A DNA stretch of 64,000 nucleotides from Ectocarpus siliculosus (Eukaryota; Sar; Phaeophyceae; Ectocarpales; Ectocarpaceae). The notes under the pieces are model-generated. The model was not told the origin of the DNA, did no database searches, and was given only the letters and a program-made list of their open reading frames with translations. Shown piece by piece: positions 53,181 to 63,543 of the stretch. The DNA lies in contig FN649749.1 of NCBI GenBank assembly GCA_000310025.1, forward strand, positions 2,938,473 to 3,002,472, read 5' to 3'. How positions within the stretch are numbered: position 1 is the first letter of the stretch; each line of letters starts with the position of its first letter. Position numbers and translations under genes: made by a program.

Positions 53181-56100
53181 ATGACCGATGCTGTCTCGAA
53201 GCCGTCGACGTGGCAGGGCTCCCCCCCGACTACCTTCAAGCCCAAGAAGCCCTTCATGCCTCGCCTGGTGCGATCGAACAAGCCAGACCATGTCATCGGC
53301 CCAGGCGCTATGCTGCAGGTATGCACGTGTATCCGCACACGACGAACATGCAAAAATCCCTGCACACAAAATACAAATCATTCCAACAATCCCTGCACAC
53401 AAAATACAAATCATTCCAACGTGTCGCCCACTACATTATTAGCAAGATGTGTTACACTCTGAATCTGCCTCTTGTCTTGTAGCTTGCTGTCTCTTCCACA
53501 AGAACTATTATAATGAAGACGGCTGTTCGTATGCGTACTCTTCGTTATGACAGCTGAGATTTGTCGCCCGAAGGTTCATGTCCGCTGGACGTTTCGTCCC
53601 AGTGGTAGACACCGCCGTTATGTTTGGTCACCTCATCGTTGAGATTAATAATTGCGTACCCAAACGCGTTCGTAAATTCCTCCTGAAGCGCGGAAAGATC
53701 AAGGATGGTTGGGAAATACTTGCTCCAGTGCTGGGCCGCAGTCATTTCGATCCGTTTTTGTCCGGCTGTGTGTGTGTCTGTCTTCTCTGGTTTCATATTT
53801 GACGAGAGTCATGCGTGCATGCCGTGTTGCAGCGTTGCTGCTTTTTGTTTCCCCGTCGGCAAGTCTTCTTGTGGCCCCCGGCGTTATCCCTCGCCTTCTC
53901 CCCTCCCTTTCGAGTTGAACTGCTGTAAGATGCATGTACGTGGCCCACCACCTCCCTCTCTCTTTGGTCAGGATTACAACCAAAGTTTGCGCCACACGCA
54001 AGCTGACTACAAGTACTACTGTAGAGGGGAAAATGTGGTAGCACAGCCGTTGTCGCGGAAATACTTTTTCGTTGTGGGATGGGGAAGGGAGAGCAAGCCA
54101 TTTACTTCGAGTATTTTTTTTTAACGGGCACAATTTACTCCTGGTGGCTGTTTGTTCGAGACACTGCACTGTGCGACTTGCTGCGCGTTCGCGCCCTAAC
54201 TACTTGGGCAAGAGATCAGCACCGGATCGCAGTGTCGTAGCTTGAAAAACACACGCTGCCAATAGTATGGCAACAGCACCCAGCATAATCCGATGCGCTT
54301 CGAGCGGGGTGACATCCTGCGCAACACGGAGAAAAAAGAGAGGCTGCGACAATTGCGACACGGCGGTATATTGTGTTGCATTAGACTTCTGTTGCAGACT
54401 ACGTAGAATAGATGTTCGTGTGTACAGTATTGTGCAATCTCGCAAAGATCGGGGTAACACCTCTGTGTGTAGGTACACACCCAGGAGCCGAGGAGTCGAT
54501 GTGATACTCCTGTAGCAAAGGTTCGAAACTACGCACATACGCACATACCCCGCCGGACACATCACAACAGCGGCAGCAAGCCTCGCTACTTTTGTAGCTC
54601 TCAGCTCTTCGATTCACCAACGGATCCCACGGCAAGTTTTGCAAGGATTTCGACCGTTGCCAAAATTAGCGGATATTGTAGCGCCAGTTCGAGTGTACAC
54701 AGAGGGAAGAGAGTGCTGAACTCTTCTCGCATTAGAAATCGAAGGCAACGTACCGCAGGAGGGGAGGGTAGAGAGGGGCCCTTCTGTGTGACCACGGGTT
54801 AAACAGCACTATAATAGTTAGTGCTGTGAGCGGTGATTTGAAGTGAAACAAGAAAAAAAAAATGCCCAGACAGCCAGACGACGTTTTCATGGTCCGCAGC
54901 AACCGATGGTTCACTCTGTGTGTTTCATTTCATCTCTCTATCTATTTATAGTATCTACATGCTGCGCGCTGTTGTAGTATGACGTCGACTTCATTTTTGT
55001 TTCGGTACTATGTACTGCTGTGTTATTGTATTTTGTATTTTCAACCACAACTTATGTAGCGAATCTGTCGGCTACTGGGTCGGGACTTGTTGTATGGTGA
55101 ACTCGGTGTGCTTGTCGTAAAGAACGTGCCACCTACATACTCGAAGTGTAGCAGTGAAGAGCCTATGTATGGAAAATCCAGTATCTATGTATGTCCACTA
55201 TGACGTTGGCCATATAAGAGCAGCTTAGAATAAATGCGTAGTCGCCGTGGGGGTACAGTACCCCATGTACATCGACAAAATAGGAAACAAGCCTCCGCCA
55301 AAATAACAGGCGCGTACTACTGTAAGCAGGTTGGGGTGGTGCGTAGTTTGTGAGGTCTTGCGCTCTCGGAGATACCCGTCTGCGACAAATGGCGTCTCGG
55401 GTCTTCTCTTACATAAGTCACCTTCCCTTGGTTCCGATGGCTGAATGCTCCCCCCCCCCCCCCCCACCTTTGCTCCAGACCCCCCAACCATTCTAATACG
55501 GGTCCGCAGTTGAGAAAATGTTTCGTGAAGAAACAGAGGCGGGCTCACATTTTCACGAAAAACGAGAAAAGAAATGGGTTAAGAAACACACCTCCTCAGC
55601 GGCGGTGCATCCTTACACTGAACTCTTCTTTTAAGTATATATCAACGTGTGCTCGACTGCTGCTGTGGTGACGAAAATATGAAAACTGAGTCCTCGACCC
55701 GATTTTGAGTTTGACGTTCCTTGTCCCCGTGCCCGTACTGCAGGGGCGGTTGCAGTTCAAAGGCCTGCTGCGCGTGGAGGGCCGCTTCGAGGGGGTCCTG
55801 AAGGCGGCGGAGGGCGCCAACATGATGGTGGCGCGGTCGGGCGTGATAGCTGGGGACGTGGAGGGATGCCACTCGGTGATCGTCGAAGGAACGATTATTG
55901 GCAACGTGAGCGCGAGCGTTGTGGTCCTGCGTCGGTACGCCAACGTTCAGGGGTGAGCTACGTATTCTAGCTGTCTTGTGTACTGCTGTCGAGATTTTAT
56001 CTTTAGGGGAGGGGTTTCCATTTTGCGTGTAGGGGAGAGGGGGCGTGTTTTTCTCGGCATGCGACAACGACGTGACAAACCTCGTCCTTTCACGTCTGTA

Positions 56101-56741
56101 TAAGCGTACGTGTGTATGCTTACTACTCTGAAGATATGTATTGAATCGTTCATTGTTCGCACAGAGGTGACTTGCCCGCGGTAATGAGGACCCCCATCAT
56201 GAAGCCATCATGAGGCCAACAGCAGTCGGAGCACCCCCCCTCCCCCCCCCTTTCCGGACTCTCGACCCCATCGATGTTGAGGGTGCCGTCCGTGCCGCCT
56301 CAGCAGAGCGATTAGCCTCTTCGGTGTCAGCCATGGCCGTATCACGATGGCCCCGCGCCCTAGTGAGATACCCCCCCTCCCCCCACTTTCCCAACCGCCC
56401 CCCTCCCCCCCTTGAAAACCAGGAACGTGTGGTGCAAGGACTTGGCTGCGGCGGCAACGGCGGTGTTCCGCAACCGGGCCACGGAGTCGCCGGCCCCGAG
56501 CTCTTCCTCTTCTTCCCACCACCACCGCCGGTCGAGCTCGACCTCCTCGGGCGTGATGGGCGACGCAGCAGGCAGTCGTTCACGCGGCGGCAGCGGCAGC
56601 GGCAGCGGCGGGAGGGCTCTTACGCCCCCCGCGTCCTCCTCCGGCAACCGCACGACCCAACCGACCCCTTCCCCCGATTCAGAAAGGCAGGCTTCCTCGA
56701 CTACGACGGCGGCGACAACGGCGGACGACAGCGACGTGTCC

Positions 56742-56778
<37 letters not shown>

Positions 56779-57029
56779 AGGGCTTGCCGGACGCCATCGC
56801 GGTTGCCGTCGCCTCGACGTTTCCCACCGCAGGCGGCGGTGGCGGTGCGGGGGGGAGTTCAGCAGGGGGAGGCTGTCCTTTTTCGGGTCGCGACGGGGAG
56901 GCGTTTGCGATGGACGCCTCGTCATCGACGGTGCTGGCGGCGGCACAGACCTCGGCGGCGTCTACTACAAACTCCGTCGTTGCGGCGGCGGTAGTGGTAG
57001 GGAGAGGCGTGGCGAAGTCGGGCGGCGAA

Positions 57030-57072
<43 letters not shown>

Positions 57073-58841
57073 GCCGCGGCAGCGGCGGTGGCGGCGGCGG
57101 CGGCGGCGGCGGGCCGTGGTCGTCGTCGTCGCCGAACGATTCGCGCGCGCTCGTGGTGCCCGTCGCGAAGAACTTTGCAAAGGCTAACGGCAACAACAGC
57201 AACAACCTGCTGTCGCCTCAGACCCCGCCGCCGTCGACCGGCCGCCGGTACGGAGCTAGCGGTGCTTCCGGTTGCGGCGCCGGCATGGACGCCTACGGCC
57301 GCTACTCGACGGTGGAGTCGCCCCCGCGCACGCACCGGCGTGCCGTTCACGCCGGGAGCACCCCGGGGAGAGCGCTCTCGTCGGGCTTCTCGACGGCGCC
57401 GGGCGGCGGCGAGGGAAAAGCTTTGGCAGGAGGAGGAGGAGGGGGGCCGGGGCAGGAGCAGGGGGGTGCGGGGTTTCAGTCGCTGGCGTCCGGAGCCGCG
57501 GCGGGTCCCGGTGGCTGCTGCGCCGGTGGTGCGGCGAACAGCCAGACCGATGTGAGTTTTTGGTTGGAAAAGTTGTAGATGGGTATATAGCCTAACGCTA
57601 ACAAGGTGTGTGTGCTCGGAACGAGCTCGGGGGGGGGGGGGGGGGATACTCGGTCTTGCCGAAGCGGTCGTCGGTAGGAAAGCGACATTATTAGGCGGAA
57701 AACGCCTTCCAAGAGAGGCCAGACGGACGCTACGTGGCGTACACGGGGATGGGCTTGCTCTCTGGCCCTTTGTCTTGGTTGCTCTTGGTGGTGTGACTGC
57801 TGTCTCATTTCGGTGGTAAAATGATAGCAAACTGATGGCTGTGCCACTGCTTGATATGGGCCTGTCGTAGCTGGCATCGACTGCGGCAATCTGCTGACCA
57901 ATGAACAGGCGGCGTATGTGTGCGCGTGCGTGTGCCTGCATGCCGTCTTATGTTCCGCCGCATATTTTTGCCACGTCCGACCGAGTGTAAAGACCGACAC
58001 TGCGATGCTGCTGTGCTTGTAGCTGTTGGTGCCATCGAGACTCACATGACGCACTCAGCTGCGCTGTGTTCCGCCTACAAATTGTACGCCCCTGCTGTGT
58101 TTGAAGCTCTTCACACGTTTCGTAAGCGTCCTAGCTACCTCGTTTCAACCTTTGCAATCGTAGCTGTGTGTCCCTCTCGAAGCTTACATTGTGACCAACT
58201 CAGACCACGCTACGTCTCTGTGCTCCCAATACCGCTTTGTATGCGCCCCCTATGCAACAGGGCTGTTTATTTAAGCTTGTGCGTCCGGCCTCGTTTGGAC
58301 CCACCTGGTTAGCTGTTTAGCAGCTGGCAGCTAGCAGCTAGCAGCTTTTCTCTGCGAGTCCTGGCGTTTAGCACGTTGCTACTGCGCATGTATCTGTCGC
58401 GTCGATGAAAACGCGTGGTGTGCGTCCCATGCTTGCACGCCAATTTGTCGGGTGCTCTTCCCCTATCGTTTCGTCGGTAACGAGAACGTTGGGCATCTTG
58501 TGTCGTCACGGTACGGGCGTGCGCGGTGCGCCGGCGTCCTTCCCCCCCCCCCGCCCCCCCGAGGACGCGTGGTTAATGGTCTAACAACTGCTAAGGCACG
58601 CAAAACTCCGTCCTCTCGAGGAGGACTCGTGGCCATTGTTCTGAGGCATGCAACACATGCGTACGCATCCCTCCCCCCCCCCTGCAGCGGTGGCGCCACT
58701 CCGGGAAGGACTACGGGGTAAGGGCGCCGTCCCTAACCGCGGCGTTCTCTTCGGTGGCGATACTGCTCCGGTTCGACGGCGAAGCGGGCTTCGACAAGCA
58801 CCTGGAGATGGAGTATGCTGCCGAGAACCTTTGGTGAGGGG

Positions 58842-58881
<40 letters not shown>

Positions 58882-61800
58882 GTTCGGGGAGGAACAAAGG
58901 AAACTAAGGGACGGGAGGGAGAAGGTCTGCTGCTGCTCCCATGCTAGCTTCCAAATTGTAGTCACAGCAGTGATTGTTTGGATCTCTTGTTTTGGGGCAG
59001 GAGACCTTTGCTGACACCAGATTCTCGAGCGGAGAAGAAGCACCATCGAAAACCTTCCTTGTCCTCTGTGTCGATTTGTGCGCTGCACTGCTGCTACTGT
59101 TGTACGCGCACGATGACCCACCCGCGCATGTGTCTGGTGAGATTTACAGAAGCCCTGTATGGTCGGGTGCATAATTCTGTAAAACCCATGTAAACAATGG
59201 TTGGCCTGCACTACCTAGTTTCCTCCGCGCCCACGGCAATAGCTCGTGTTCGTGACCAATTAGCCCCCTCTAGCCCAGACACCATCAGCGCCTGCTCTGT
59301 TTTTCTTCGGTTTTTCAGGACAACCAAACCGGCAGATAGGAAATCCTCTCTCGCTTGCATCCATCCTGTCACGCTTCTTGTTTTTTTCCTTACGAAACAC
59401 CATGGTAATACCCATGGTACACGACAAATCCTTGTTGTTTGAGCAGGTTCTGGAAGCAGGGCATGAAATTCCGGTCTACTCAGTTCGAAGAGACAGCTCG
59501 GCGACGGGAGGAGGCCCGCAGAATCTTCGATACCTTCCTCGCCGTCGACTCCCCTGACCAGGTTCGAAGGCATGACTAGTAATAAGGCACAGCTACGTTA
59601 CTGCTGCGGACGGATATTAGATACTGCGTTGCCCGTTGGAGGATTTTTGGGCACATTTCTATTGTAACTGACATGCATTTTCGTATGGATTCCGAGCGAG
59701 CCCATTCCCATCGAGTCAAAATGTTGTAAATGTTTATTATTTGATACTGTATCAAACAACAGCTACAGTGTTTTATTTTCGCCGGCGCTTTTTTTTTGTG
59801 TCTCTCTGCTTATTTGCGACGGCTGTAAGAGGCCGAGAGAGCGGAAATGGAACTCTCTGAGAACCCGACAGAATGTGCGACTGCTCACAATGAAAATACC
59901 TTAATTGGTTCATATTATTTCAAATTTTATGCGCAGCTTTTCTTTTTCGCCCACGTGTTGCTGTATGCATGTATATGCAGGTTAACATCTCCCATGAGGA
60001 CAGGGAGGACGTGCTGGCGGCGCTAGAGAACAGGCCCGGGGCTCAGGCCGTCGGTGCCGGGCTCTTCGACGAAGCCTTGGTTCAGGTGACATTTGGAGTA
60101 GAGTAGTCCTGCAGGCTCTGCTGACGCTATTTTATGTCTTGATAGTACAGGTGACATTGGAGTAGAGTAGTCCTGCAGGCTCTGCTGACGCTATTTTATG
60201 TACTGATAGTACAGGTGACATTGGAGTAGAGTAGTCCTGCAGGCTCTGCTGACGCTATTTTATGTATTGATATTACAGGTGACATTGGAGTAGAGTAGTC
60301 CTGCAGGCTCTGCTGACACTATTTTATGTACTGATAGTACAGGTGACATTGGAGTAGAGTAGTCCTGCAGGCTCTGTTGAAGCTATTTTATGTATTGATA
60401 GTACAGGTGACAACGGTTGGATGGAGTAGTCCTGCAGGCTCTGTTGACGCTATTTTATGTATTAGTAGTACAGGCGACAACGGTTGGGTGGAGTAGTCCT
60501 GCAGGCTCTGTTACGGCTATATTGTTAGTACAGGTGACAACCATCTGCAGGCTCTATTAACCCTTTTATCTTTACCCTTGGGTAGTCCTGCAGGCTCTGC
60601 CAACGCTATACCCCAAAGTTCGACAATATGAGGGCCATTCGGACACAAGCGCGAATACCAATGGTCCCTATACTTGCGAACATGATGTGGTATTGTTGAG
60701 ACAGTTCAGGGGTCCTTGTGTATACAAAGGCCGCCAAGCGATACGGCGTGATGTCGCCCTCATGACAGCCGCTTGTGCCCGCTCGATACTGTACCCACGA
60801 GTTACTATTTCGCCGCAAACAAATCTCGCCGGATACGCACCATGTCATAACTGCGTCCGCTGCTCGACTGCTGTGCTGCCTCTGGCGCCTCGGCTCCCCG
60901 GTGCAACAACTGTGCTAACGTGACGCCTGCGCGTCCCGTGACGGTATTGCTTCCGCTGCCGCTGCCGCTGCCGCTGCCGCTGCCGCTGCCGCTTCCGCTC
61001 CCCGGCTGTTGCTAGGTGGAGAACATGCTGGTTCTGGGACCGTTCCCTCGCTTCGTTTCGGTGACGGTCGAGACCGTCAAGACGAGCTGGCAGAAGGTCT
61101 TGGACAGATTCGGCTTCCAAGACATTGCAGGTGAAACGGCGGTCTTGCTTTCGCGGTGGTAGCGTGCTCTACATGGGAAATCTATCTCATACGTGAATGA
61201 CGCTGCTGCTCTTGGGGTCGTTTGTGGGTTCTTCTTGAAGGTACCTCCCGGCACCTTCGACCCCTTCCTCGCGGGTTTTTTAGTCGATTCAAAACTCCGA
61301 TCCACTAGTCATGCGGCGGGCACCATTGCCGCCGCCACCACCACCTACTACATAGCTACTAAGGCTACCACTGCTAGTGAGACTTGTACAGAACATGCCA
61401 CCCGTTGAGAACGTTGGAGTTCAGAAGTTCAGGCTCAACAACACCGAAACTCGCGAACTCGACCATGACCACCGGTGCGCTGTTCAGAACAGTGAACAAA
61501 AGAAGTTGATGTTGGGATACCCCAAAGATGGCATAAGAAACGAGCCTTAGGATAAAGCAAGAGGTTCTGAGGGTGTTGTCTGTGTCTCCCTCTATGGTTG
61601 GTTCCGGCCAGGACCCAGGCTGCAAGGCCCGTGAGATGACCTAGATAGCAAATCTCCCGCGACCACTGGGCGTAGTAAGCACCCTGACGCATGCAGGCTA
61701 CGTGCGATGCCCCATCTTACGCAGTCTATAAACCGCAACCCGCCTGGGTAGATGCGGCGATGAGTGCCCGGTGAGTTATCCCTCCGCGCCGCCGCCCTCG

Positions 61801-62072
61801 CTTTGTCAACCGACGCTTGGCTGCCAACATTTTGGTAAAGATAAAGGTTTTGGCATATAATGGAGATTGTTTGGCTTGGGACGCATCACACGCGTGAAAA
61901 TGTCTGGCGTGGGATCCCCCCCCCCTTCACACTGTGGGTGCCTCTCCCCCCCCACTTCGTTTTCTTGCCCTGTTCAGGTAAGGCATCCCTTTGCACGCCC
62001 TCTCACCCGTGATTGCGCCTCTCTGTCTGTCTGTCTGTCGGCCCGCTCTGTCTGTATTGTCATTGTGCTACT

Positions 62073-62148
<76 letters not shown>

Positions 62149-63543
62149 GGAACGGCGGTTTAATCTCGTGTCGGCGCCTGTCGCTTGTCGCTTGTGGGTT
62201 ATCATGACCAGACTCGTTCTACTCGGTGCTCTTCGAGGTGGAGCCCTCGGTCGAGAGCTTGTTCACGAGGTCCAAGCGTTTCCACGGAGAGGTGCGTCAA
62301 TGTGCCTGTTGTGTTTTTGGTGTTGGGTGATGTGGTCTGTTGGATGCCGTTGATATGTTTTTGCTGTGCTGTTTGGTGTTTGCTGATGATGTGGTCTGTT
62401 GGATGTCGTTGATGTTGTTGCTCGTGTTGTTGTTGTGCTGTTCTGTGTTCGCTGATGGTGTGGTCTTTCGGATGCCGTTGATGTTGTTGCTCATGTTTTT
62501 TTTGTCCTGTTTGGTGATTGCTGATGATGTGGTCTGTTGGATGTCGTTGATGTTGTCCCTGATGTTTTTCTCTGTCATTTGGTGCTGTTTGTTGTTTGCT
62601 GGTGTGGTCGGTCGAATGCCGTTCGGTGGCGTGGTTGTCGATGTCGTCGGCGGCGTTGGGTCGTCGATGTCTGTGGTAGTGTGATTGTTGCTTTGACTAC
62701 TGTCGTCGTCGCTGTTGCTGCTGTTGTTGTTGATTTTTTGTCCTTGCCGTTTTGTGGTGCCTGTAGGTTCACACCAGTCGATGCACGCGTGGCTCAATTC
62801 AGACCTCTCAGATAACCAGAACGACACATGCCTCAATTTCGTGTGTAGAATTCCCTTTGGTTGCTCTCTCCCTCAATCTGTGTAACACGAACTGTGCTGA
62901 AGATGACGGGGTGACCTTTCATGCCAATGCGTTCTAGACATCGGCGCGACCCCCGCTCCTGCTCCTCTCTCTAGGCGTCGTAAAAACAAACGGCCTCGTT
63001 GCTCATGAAACCGCAGATGCTCATGCGCATGGTGGACACGTCCGTGAGGCTTCTCAACAACCTCCAGGAGCTTGTACCCGACCTCCTTCAGCTCGGCCTT
63101 CGACACAACGCGTACAAGGTGCGAAGTAGTATTCTGTATCCCTTACCCTCAATGACCGATAATGTTAAAAGTACTTACTTTGGCCTATTTTTGTTTTAGT
63201 AAGAACAGGTCAGCCCCACATCGTAATCACGTCCCCCCCTCCCCCCAACGCCTTATGCCACTTCAGACCCGGCGTGGTGTGCGAGCCTGGTCGGTTCCAG
63301 TTGGGATGCGAGGTTCCACGATGGAAAGAGTCCCCCTCGGCATCCATGACCACATCCCCCCTCCCTCCCCCAATCGTATTGACGAAACCGCCTCTCCGGC
63401 AGGTTCGAAAGGAGCATTTTCCCGTCGTCGGGGAAGCCCTGATAGCCACGCTGGGCCTCGTTCTCCAGAACGAGTTCACCGACGAAGTCAAGCAGTCGTG
63501 GGCAGCCGTTTACAACCTCTTGTCCAACATCATGGTGGGCTAA
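53181..63543 (+). CDS. Bactofilin - low-complexity linker - RGS - globin multidomain protein
   Basis: Exons: 53181-53318, 55744-55952, 56423-57551, 58688-58833, 59447-59561, 59981-60085, 61016-61130, 62212-62291, 63017-63118, 63403-63543 (stop TAA). All nine junctions agree in phase (0, 2, 0, 2, 0, 0, 1, 0, 0), giving 759 residues. Another in-frame ATG lies at 53148. Residues about 35-135: bactofilin beta-helix. 140-490: Ser/Gly/Ala/Pro-rich linker. About 500-630: RGS fold, which in other proteins speeds GTP hydrolysis by heterotrimeric G-alpha. About 630-757: globin of the bacterial single-domain type. Exon 61016-61130 encodes the end of RGS and the first globin helix together, and exon 55744-55952 joins exons 1 and 3 within the bactofilin fold. 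The linker-RGS junction rests on phase only. I infer a heme-dependent regulator of G-protein signalling on a polymer-forming scaffold. There is no transcript proof of a single mRNA. Confidence 0.8.
53280..56480 (+). other. Bactofilin (polymer-forming cytoskeletal) domain, three exons
   Basis: Reads VIGPGAMLQGRLQFKGLLRV, EGRFEGVL, VARSGVIAGDVEGCHSVIVE, GTIIGNVSASVVVL, then ANVQGNVWCKDL: the regular G-hydrophobic repeats of the bactofilin right-handed beta-helix, about 100 residues. Bacterial bactofilins form filaments without nucleotide. The exon junctions at 53318/55744 and 55952/56423 fall inside the fold and restore its periodicity, which supports both splices. The short N-terminal extension (about 35 residues, Lys/Pro-rich) resembles those of bacterial homologues. 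Confidence 0.85.
56480..57551 (+). other. Low-complexity linker (Ser/Gly/Ala/Pro) in exon 3
   Basis: About 350 residues rich in Ser, Gly, Ala and Pro with polyserine, polyalanine and polyglycine runs. It contains one conserved-looking patch, VVPVAKNFAKANGNN. It probably acts as a flexible spacer between the bactofilin and RGS domains. The GC content and the triplet repeats open long frames on both strands, so frame choice rests on the exon junctions. Confidence 0.65.
58560..58652 (-). repeat. Dispersed repeat element, copy 3 (tandem pair of half-units)
   Basis: In reverse complement it reads GCATGCCTCAGAACAATGG, GTCCTCCTCGAGAGGACGGA, then GCGTGCCTTAGCAGTTGTTA, GACCATTAACCACGCGTCCT. These are two related half-units of the element at 6080. 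It ends about 35 bp upstream of the RGS exon acceptor. Confidence 0.65.
58847..58879. repeat. (GA)n microsatellite
   Basis: About 16 GA units, 13 bp downstream of the 5' splice site of RGS exon 4. Confidence 0.9.
60083..60600. repeat. Minisatellite of 64-65 bp units, starting at a 5' splice site
   Basis: About eight copies; CAGGTGAC recurs at about 60083, 60148, 60212, 60276, 60340 and 60404, then with decay to 60540. Each unit contains GTAGTCCTGCAGGCTCTG and a TATTTTATGTA segment. The first CAGGTGAC is the exon 6 end and donor, so the donor sequence itself has been multiplied. Later copies are more diverged. Confidence 0.93.
60952..60998. repeat. (GCTGCC)n repeat
   Basis: Seven or so GCTGCC hexamers ending about 20 bp before the acceptor of exon 7 at 61016. 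Confidence 0.9.
61061..63534 (+). other. Globin domain (exons 7-10)
   Basis: VKTSWQKVLDRFG forms helix A, and SFYSVLFEVEPSVESLF helices B-C. RFHGEMLMRMVDTSVRLL is helix E, with His at the distal E7 position in a gapless alignment to bacterial single-domain globins. LGLRHNAYKV carries the proximal F8 His. HFPVVGEALIATLGLVL and VKQSWAAVYNLLSNIM are helices G and H. The length (about 125 residues) is normal. Both heme-pocket histidines are present, so heme binding is likely. Confidence 0.88.
62070..62147. repeat. (CT)n microsatellite
   Basis: About 38 CT units in the intron before globin exon 8. Confidence 0.95.

What the first reader, a model, noticed from the sequence alone, without database searches (positions are those of the whole stretch)
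53181..63543. Predicted bactofilin-RGS-globin fusion protein
Ten exons with fully matching phases join a polymer-forming bactofilin domain, an RGS domain with its G-alpha contact residues, and a globin with both heme histidines. Bactofilins are scaffold proteins best known from bacteria, RGS domains switch off heterotrimeric G proteins, and globins sense or carry O2, NO or CO. Together they suggest a gas- or redox-controlled G-protein regulator anchored to a polymer. I know of no described protein with this set of domains, but I could not search.
Basis: partly seen in the sequence, partly recalled or inferred. Interest (0 to 1): 0.93.

Follow-up and report, generated by a model that had tools for sequence, protein, structure and literature searches.

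The report
Brown-algal bactofilin–RGS–globin fusion protein
A brown alga carries one gene that joins a bacterial-type filament-forming domain, a switch-off domain for G proteins and a haem-binding globin, and relatives of it occur in other brown algae, so it is probably a real signalling protein whose job still has to be tested.

The parts
53181..53318 (+). Exon 1: start codon, conserved basic N-terminal stretch (FKPKKPFMPRLVRSNKPDHVIG) and first bactofilin strand
   Evidence: 29 of 35 aligned residues of aa 1-37 identical in P0001; P0005 and P0007 keep the stretch and have a Met 6-8 residues before the matching Lys, though both models read on upstream of that Met
55744..55952 (+). Exon 2: core of the bactofilin beta-helix
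   Evidence: PF04519 aa 38-132, E 3.3e-15; genome scan 7.6e-11 for this exon
56423..57551 (+). Exon 3: last bactofilin turn (NVWCKDLAAAATAVF, with Phe131) and a ~360-aa low-complexity Ser/Gly/Ala/Pro linker with HRRSSS and SPPRTHRR motifs
   Evidence: join 2/3 in P0001, P0005, P0006; join 3/4 in P0001, P0002, P0003; linker identity 135/327 to P0001, 271/323 to P0002; HRRSSS in 5 and SPPRTHRR in 3 relatives
58688..58833 (+). Exon 4: start of the RGS domain (..EYAAENLW), Glu534, Glu538, Asn539
59447..59561 (+). Exon 5: RGS domain, middle helices
59981..60085 (+). Exon 6: RGS domain, VNISHEDRE.. to ..FDEALVQ, Asn581
   Evidence: (85% identical to P0001)
61016..61130 (+). Exon 7: end of RGS (GPFPRF) running straight into globin helix A
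   Evidence: P0010 has the same continuous stretch
62212..62291 (+). Exon 8: globin helices B-C and start of E, Tyr656 (B10), His677 (E7; Gln in relatives)
   Evidence: helix names by alignment to Hell's Gate globin I and recall
63017..63118 (+). Exon 9: globin helices E-F, proximal His709 (F8)
   Evidence: boundary supported by P0001, P0012, P0014
63403..63543 (+).
   Evidence: P0001, P0010, P0011 continue past this point
53292..56471 (+). Bactofilin domain (PF04519), split over exons 1-3
58775..61057 (+). RGS domain (PF00615), split over exons 4-7
   Evidence: RGS8 5do9_B E 6.1e-10
62217..63528 (+). Globin domain (PF00042), split over exons 8-10

Best explanation
One spliced gene encodes a single bactofilin-linker-RGS-globin protein with a probable C-terminal tail. 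Shown by sequence: the three domains, their order, exon joins compatible with one reading frame, and conservation in brown algae. Inferred: the N-terminal bactofilin domain assembles or docks on a bactofilin polymer, perhaps at a membrane through the conserved basic N-terminal stretch; a long flexible, possibly phosphorylated linker lets the RGS-globin head reach membrane-bound G-alpha; the RGS domain binds activated G-alpha and speeds GTP hydrolysis; the globin, whose first helix follows the end of RGS without a linker, binds haem and a small ligand (O2, NO or CO) or changes redox state, and movement of that helix alters the adjoining G-alpha-binding face. The output would be local, gas- or redox-tuned shut-off of G-protein signalling.
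For: Gene model and phases; three Pfam domains over cut-off; full-order homologue P0001 that maps to all ten exons of this locus alone; partial homologues across the joins; domains conserved (71/95, 102/140, 89/123 identical to P0001) against a fast linker (135/327). A Phe near the end of the bactofilin domain (F131) is kept in all 5 relatives that cover it (P0001, P0002, P0003, P0005, P0006) and aligns to a Phe at about chain position 105 of Thermus bactofilin (my count); F105R is the mutant named in the title of 6ria, and a conserved Phe of this interface is needed for self-assembly in Caulobacter BacA (PMC12448750, passages). Proximal His in 6 of 6 and Phe at CD1 (assignment recalled). The helix after GPFPRF is globin helix A in the Chrysoparadoxa model. 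Targets exist: 22 G-alpha exon matches on seven contigs, five of which have a match over the cut-off (one control, Thermotoga, gave a match below the cut-off), one with switch I RTTGI (L014). Precedent: a bacterial globin fused to a GTPase-regulator domain, HGbRL (PMC4476040, passages), is third among PDB sequences; human neuroglobin acts as a GDI on G-alpha-i/o (PMC4842972, passages).
Against: In Pylaiella the bactofilin part (P0005, partial) and the RGS part (P0009) are separate models, each listed with a contig of 417406 bases. The Ectocarpus sp. 13 model (P0006) leaves the frame in the linker repeat and ends there. P0010 is partial and the Discosporangium model P0011 starts at the end of RGS, so a bactofilin part is not shown outside brown algae. 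RGS contact positions L159 and D163 read Met and Gly, so GAP activity may be weak or altered. Distal E7 differs between species. No co-factor, GAP or polymer data. The RGS part of the predicted model has low confidence (blocks at pLDDT 32-63).
Confidence: 0.45

Rival explanations
1. The fusion is real, but the RGS domain is a G-alpha binding or scaffold module rather than a GAP, and the globin only protects or scavenges (for example NO dioxygenase-like chemistry without a reductase), so there is no gas-gated switch.
For: L159 and D163 equivalents are changed, and GPFPRF is kept in P0001, P0009, P0010, P0011 and P0013; the only NCBIfam match of P0001 is flavohaemoprotein, far under its cut-off (67.9 of 432 bits); neuroglobin shows a globin can act on G-alpha directly.
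Against: Glu, Glu, Asn, Asn and Arg contacts are kept; a G-alpha with switch I RTTGI is present; no linker between RGS and globin helix A, which favours coupling.
Confidence: 0.3
2. Two neighbouring genes: a bactofilin with a disordered tail and an RGS-globin gene, read as one by phase coincidence and by gene predictors.
For: Pylaiella models are split; the 1.1-kb intron 3 separates the linker from RGS; low-complexity linkers mislead predictors; only RGS-globin is seen in the partial Chrysoparadoxa protein.
Against: Three predicted proteins run from linker into RGS (P0001, P0002, P0003) and join at the same place; in E. fasciculatus 9/10 and 8/10 residues on either side are identical, though P0001 (5 and 4-6 of 10) and P0003 (3 and 5 of 10) are weaker there; exon 3 ends at a GT donor in phase with exon 4; P0001 has the whole order.
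Confidence: 0.1
3. The fusion is real but the bactofilin domain has lost polymerisation and serves as a rigid membrane or protein adaptor; the unit acts in flagellar or polarity signalling of zoids rather than on a filament.
For: The last turn of the P0001 model is low confidence and drawn as a helix (121-134); the linker is long; other bactofilins of this genome could form the polymer instead. The cell-biological setting is a guess.
Against: Interface Phe kept in 5 of 5 relatives that cover it; beta-helix core predicted at block pLDDT 88-96.
Confidence: 0.15

Closest known systems
HGbRL of Methylacidiphilum (globin-Roadblock/LC7; PDB 3wfw)
   Same: A related globin fused to a domain class that regulates GTPases (MglB is a GAP for MglA; PMC4476040, passages); its globin is third among PDB sequence hits, after two Hell's Gate globin I constructs
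   Different: Bacterial, globin N-terminal, Roadblock instead of RGS, small GTPase instead of heterotrimeric G-alpha, no bactofilin
Globin-coupled sensors (HemAT, RsbR and others)
   Same: A globin joined to an output domain
   Different: GCS globins are a different subfamily (recalled); here the best matches are Hell's Gate globin I, flavohaemoglobins and neuroglobin, and the output is eukaryotic RGS placed N-terminal of the globin
RGS8/RGS4-type RGS proteins
   Same: Same domain with 5 of 7 recalled G-alpha contacts
   Different: No description of an RGS-globin or RGS-bactofilin protein seen in the paper listings (partly capped), and outside this gene's relatives none in the protein searches
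Bacterial bactofilins (Thermus TtBac, Caulobacter BacA)
   Same: Beta-helix fold, conserved Phe near the domain end, RVEGRFEG stretch shared with an unnamed-source bactofilin P0008
   Different: Intron-containing eukaryotic gene; the basic stretch is internal rather than a terminal MFSKKKK-type membrane tag (PMC12448750 section 8); fused to signalling domains
Neuroglobin as a G-alpha GDI
   Same: A globin acting on G-alpha under oxidative stress (PMC4842972, passages)
   Different: A separate globin with no RGS domain; acts on nucleotide release, not on hydrolysis

Membership tests
Bactofilin (PF04519) | Profile match over the curated cut-off | tested here: met
   56.6 bits against 27.9
Bactofilin (PF04519) | Right-handed beta-helix fold | tested here: met
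Bactofilin (PF04519) | Self-assembly into non-polar filaments | not testable with these tools
   Conserved Phe is present; no assembly data
RGS domain (PF00615) | Profile match over the curated cut-off | tested here: met
   49 bits against 23.9
RGS domain (PF00615) | Seven principal G-alpha contact positions (RGS4 E83, E87, N88, N128, L159, D163, R167; recalled) | tested here: inconclusive
   Five kept; L159 is Met and D163 is Gly in the alignment to RGS8
RGS domain (PF00615) | GAP activity on G-alpha | not testable with these tools
   No assay; a G-alpha with switch I RTTGI exists in the genome
RGS domain (PF00615) | RGS fold in a predicted structure | tested here: inconclusive
   RGS part at block pLDDT 32-63; the globin filled the match list
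Globin, 3/3 (PF00042) | Profile match and proximal His F8 | tested here: met
   45.9 bits against 22; His709, kept in 6 of 6
Globin, 3/3 (PF00042) | Globin fold | tested here: met
Globin, 3/3 (PF00042) | Haem and ligand binding | not testable with these tools
   Needs spectroscopy
Flavohaemoglobin | C-terminal FAD/NAD reductase domains | tested here: not met
   No such Pfam domain in the model or in P0001
Globin-coupled sensor | Globin of the sensor-globin subfamily N-terminal to its output domain | tested here: not met
   Globin is C-terminal to RGS; best sequence matches are Hell's Gate globins, flavohaemoglobins and neuroglobin

The most novel reading that the evidence does not exclude
A eukaryotic bactofilin that has become a signalling scaffold: brown algae carry a haem-gated RGS protein in which the globin, joined to the RGS domain without a linker, sets the lifetime of GTP on G-alpha according to O2, NO or redox state, and a bacterial-type polymer confines this to one place in the cell.
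Probability: 0.33. Interest if true: 0.9.

Novelty: new variant of a known kind. Interest (0 to 1): 0.74.

Why it matters
If right, it would be an RGS protein with a built-in haem sensor, a case of a bacterial-type cytoskeletal domain recruited into eukaryotic G-protein signalling, and a handle on how brown algae, which evolved complex multicellularity separately from animals and plants, sense oxygen, NO or redox stress. It would make two questions testable in a laboratory alga: can haem state gate a GAP, and do eukaryotic bactofilins polymerise?

Tried and rejected
A short extra exon at 56165-56180 between exons 2 and 3 breaks the phase and was dropped. Using the upstream acceptor before exon 9 gives a stop and was dropped. 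Per-exon genome scans with PF00615 and PF00042 missed this gene's own RGS and globin exons, so they cannot be used to say that there are no other RGS or globin genes. The C-terminal tail of the relatives was not found in the window. No relative of RGS-globin among viral contigs (0 of 101 pattern matches confirmed); no prokaryotic contig with a confirmed relative of the bactofilin part (0 of 104), which with the introns speaks against contamination. The P0001 full-length model (seven rows) did not show the globin (mean pLDDT 48.4; the helical matches are generic bundles, and one search had no match at E<=0.001, Thermus bactofilin being best at 6.4e-3); the shorter P0010 model did. Absence of RGS chains from those fold lists says nothing. 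Papers: nine searches bore on this. No title or abstract start that I saw describes an RGS-globin, a bactofilin-RGS or a brown-algal bactofilin protein; listings were cut (20 of 1,092; 20 of 38; 40 of 130; 10 of 15; 10 of 27; 5 of 2,264), and the library lacks most subscription papers. Deng et al. 2019 on bactofilin filaments was not read; Curtis et al. 2024 was not held; PMC7203096 gave no bactofilin passage in the part held.
Full report
Observation. I rebuilt the gene from the sequence. Ten exons with GT..AG introns and matching phases give 759 aa. Pfam finds bactofilin (aa 38-132, 3.3e-15), RGS (522-628, 9.6e-13) and globin (655-755, 9.4e-12), each over its cut-off. The window lies in a 189-Mb genome in 492 contigs. 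I cannot name the species; P0006 from Ectocarpus sp. 13 is 59/60 identical in the bactofilin part and 101/139 over a linker stretch that includes its frame change, and P0002 from E. fasciculatus 271/323 in the linker, so it is an Ectocarpus or a near relative (inference).

Is it one gene? Three protein searches were made: residues 493-759 with candidates sized by the whole model (4 hits of 4157 candidates), a linker-less two-sequence profile (6 of 7997 scored), and an RGS-globin profile (9 of 7994 scored); in the last two only the candidates sharing most words were scored. They list 15 different proteins. One, P0001 (EukProt, species not given), has all three domains in the same order. P0004 is a flavohaemoglobin-type protein and P0008 a bactofilin of unnamed source. 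The other 12 I read as pieces of this gene from named ochrophytes or unnamed contigs: P0005 and P0006 join bactofilin to linker, P0002 and P0003 join linker to RGS, P0010 joins RGS to globin, P0009 is RGS, P0011 is globin, and P0007 and P0012-P0015 read out single exons (no Pfam match on their own).

Mapping the nine junctions: 1/2 in P0001, P0005; 2/3 in P0001, P0005, P0006; 3/4 in P0001, P0002, P0003; 4/5 in P0001, P0002, P0003, P0009, P0010; 5/6 and 6/7 in P0001, P0009, P0010; 7/8, 8/9 and 9/10 in P0001, P0010, P0011. Some of these are weak: 7/8 has 1-3 of 10 identical on the left in all three; 3/4 has 3-5 of 10 on the left in P0003 and P0001; 5/6 in P0010 has 2 and 3 of 10. P0001 also gave one spurious extra alignment at 2/3, and P0004 and P0008 distant ones. 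P0007 and P0012-P0015 gave none. Searching the own genome with P0001 gave ten matches, one per exon, all at this locus.

Against one gene: Pylaiella has separate models for the two parts, each listed with a contig of 417406 bases. The Pylaiella RGS model ends in what looks like a shifted reading of globin exon 8 (compare), so its annotation is unreliable. P0006 leaves the frame in the linker repeat. No RNA was available. I put the single-gene reading at about 0.9.

Constraint. Identity to P0001 is 29/35 (N-terminus), 71/95 (bactofilin), 135/327 (linker), 102/140 (RGS) and 89/123 (globin): folded parts are conserved and the linker drifts, as expected for a working multidomain protein. DNA of relatives was not available, so no codon test was made.

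Depth. P0010 is from Chrysoparadoxa australica, placed in the PX clade outside Phaeophyceae, and P0011 from the brown alga Discosporangium. This suggests that RGS-globin predates brown algae; whether bactofilin was already joined is not known, because P0010 is partial. No RGS-globin outside ochrophytes came up in the three searches, whose reach is limited to proteins sharing exact words and within set length ranges.

C-terminus. All three relatives with this region continue past the globin (NIM[IM]S[VT]LD...), and two have a basic serine-rich motif further on (SFKNQFSKLVRK in P0001, SFKTRLSKFVGG in P0011; P0010 has a looser SFKRKSIRML). The window's stop comes two codons after NIM, at a possible donor. 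The 759-aa model is therefore probably short at its end.

Context. The genome holds 22 G-alpha exon matches on seven contigs; one at L014 reads TRIRTTGI...VDVGGQRNERRKW, the kind of switch I that RGS proteins recognise (recalled). Five further bactofilin loci exist; of the loci compared, the nearest to the model is on contig C23 (28.7% identity, 2.8e-9). The RGS scan found three other loci. That scan and the globin scan (0 matches) missed this gene's own exons, so they give no count.

Mechanism. Shown: anatomy and conservation. Inferred: polymer or membrane tethering, G-alpha binding, haem binding, and coupling through the RGS-globin boundary. The nearest known arrangement is HGbRL, where a related globin is fused to a Roadblock GTPase-regulator-type domain and its conformational change is proposed to pass on the signal (PMC4476040, passages). 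Neuroglobin acting as a GDI on G-alpha-i/o is a second precedent (PMC4842972, passages).

Novelty. Each domain is known, and bactofilins have been noted in 'a few eukaryotes' (PMC12364344, passages) and in Imitevirales giant viruses (PMC12192438, passage). No description of the combination was seen in nine searches of an open-licence library, some of whose lists were cut (named in Tried and rejected). I class it as a new variant of a known kind (globin-linked regulators and multidomain RGS proteins).

Noticed in passing
60083-60510: Minisatellite of 6.6 copies of a 64-bp unit that begins at the exon-6 donor (CAG|gtgaca) and runs into intron 6, so a donor-like site is repeated in tandem.
   Followed up: partly
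L002, L003, L004/L005, L006, L007: Five further bactofilin loci in the same genome; the one at L004/L005 carries a core resembling the fusion's (LRRSAIVIGNITCYSL). This alga seems to have a small bactofilin family.
   Followed up: partly
L013-L020: G-alpha exons at several loci, one with an RTTGI switch I and one reading MTSGV there (L014 and L016): possibly a mix of RGS-sensitive and RGS-insensitive G-alphas.
   Followed up: partly
56743-57112: GCG/GCA-type codon repeats in the linker exon; the Ectocarpus sp. 13 model (P0006) changes frame at the first of them, so the repeat may vary or be mis-assembled between strains.
   Followed up: no
62355-62569: 69-bp tandem repeat, 3.1 copies, in intron 8.
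   Followed up: no
56423-57551: P0001 and P0003 share a short stretch in the linker (GRRLATGRWAGCPLPEDVQRAMEREQRKAG and GRRLIAGRWVGCPHPDDIERVMEQRARGE) that I do not see in the window model or P0002, so the Ectocarpus lineage may have lost a linker element.
   Followed up: no
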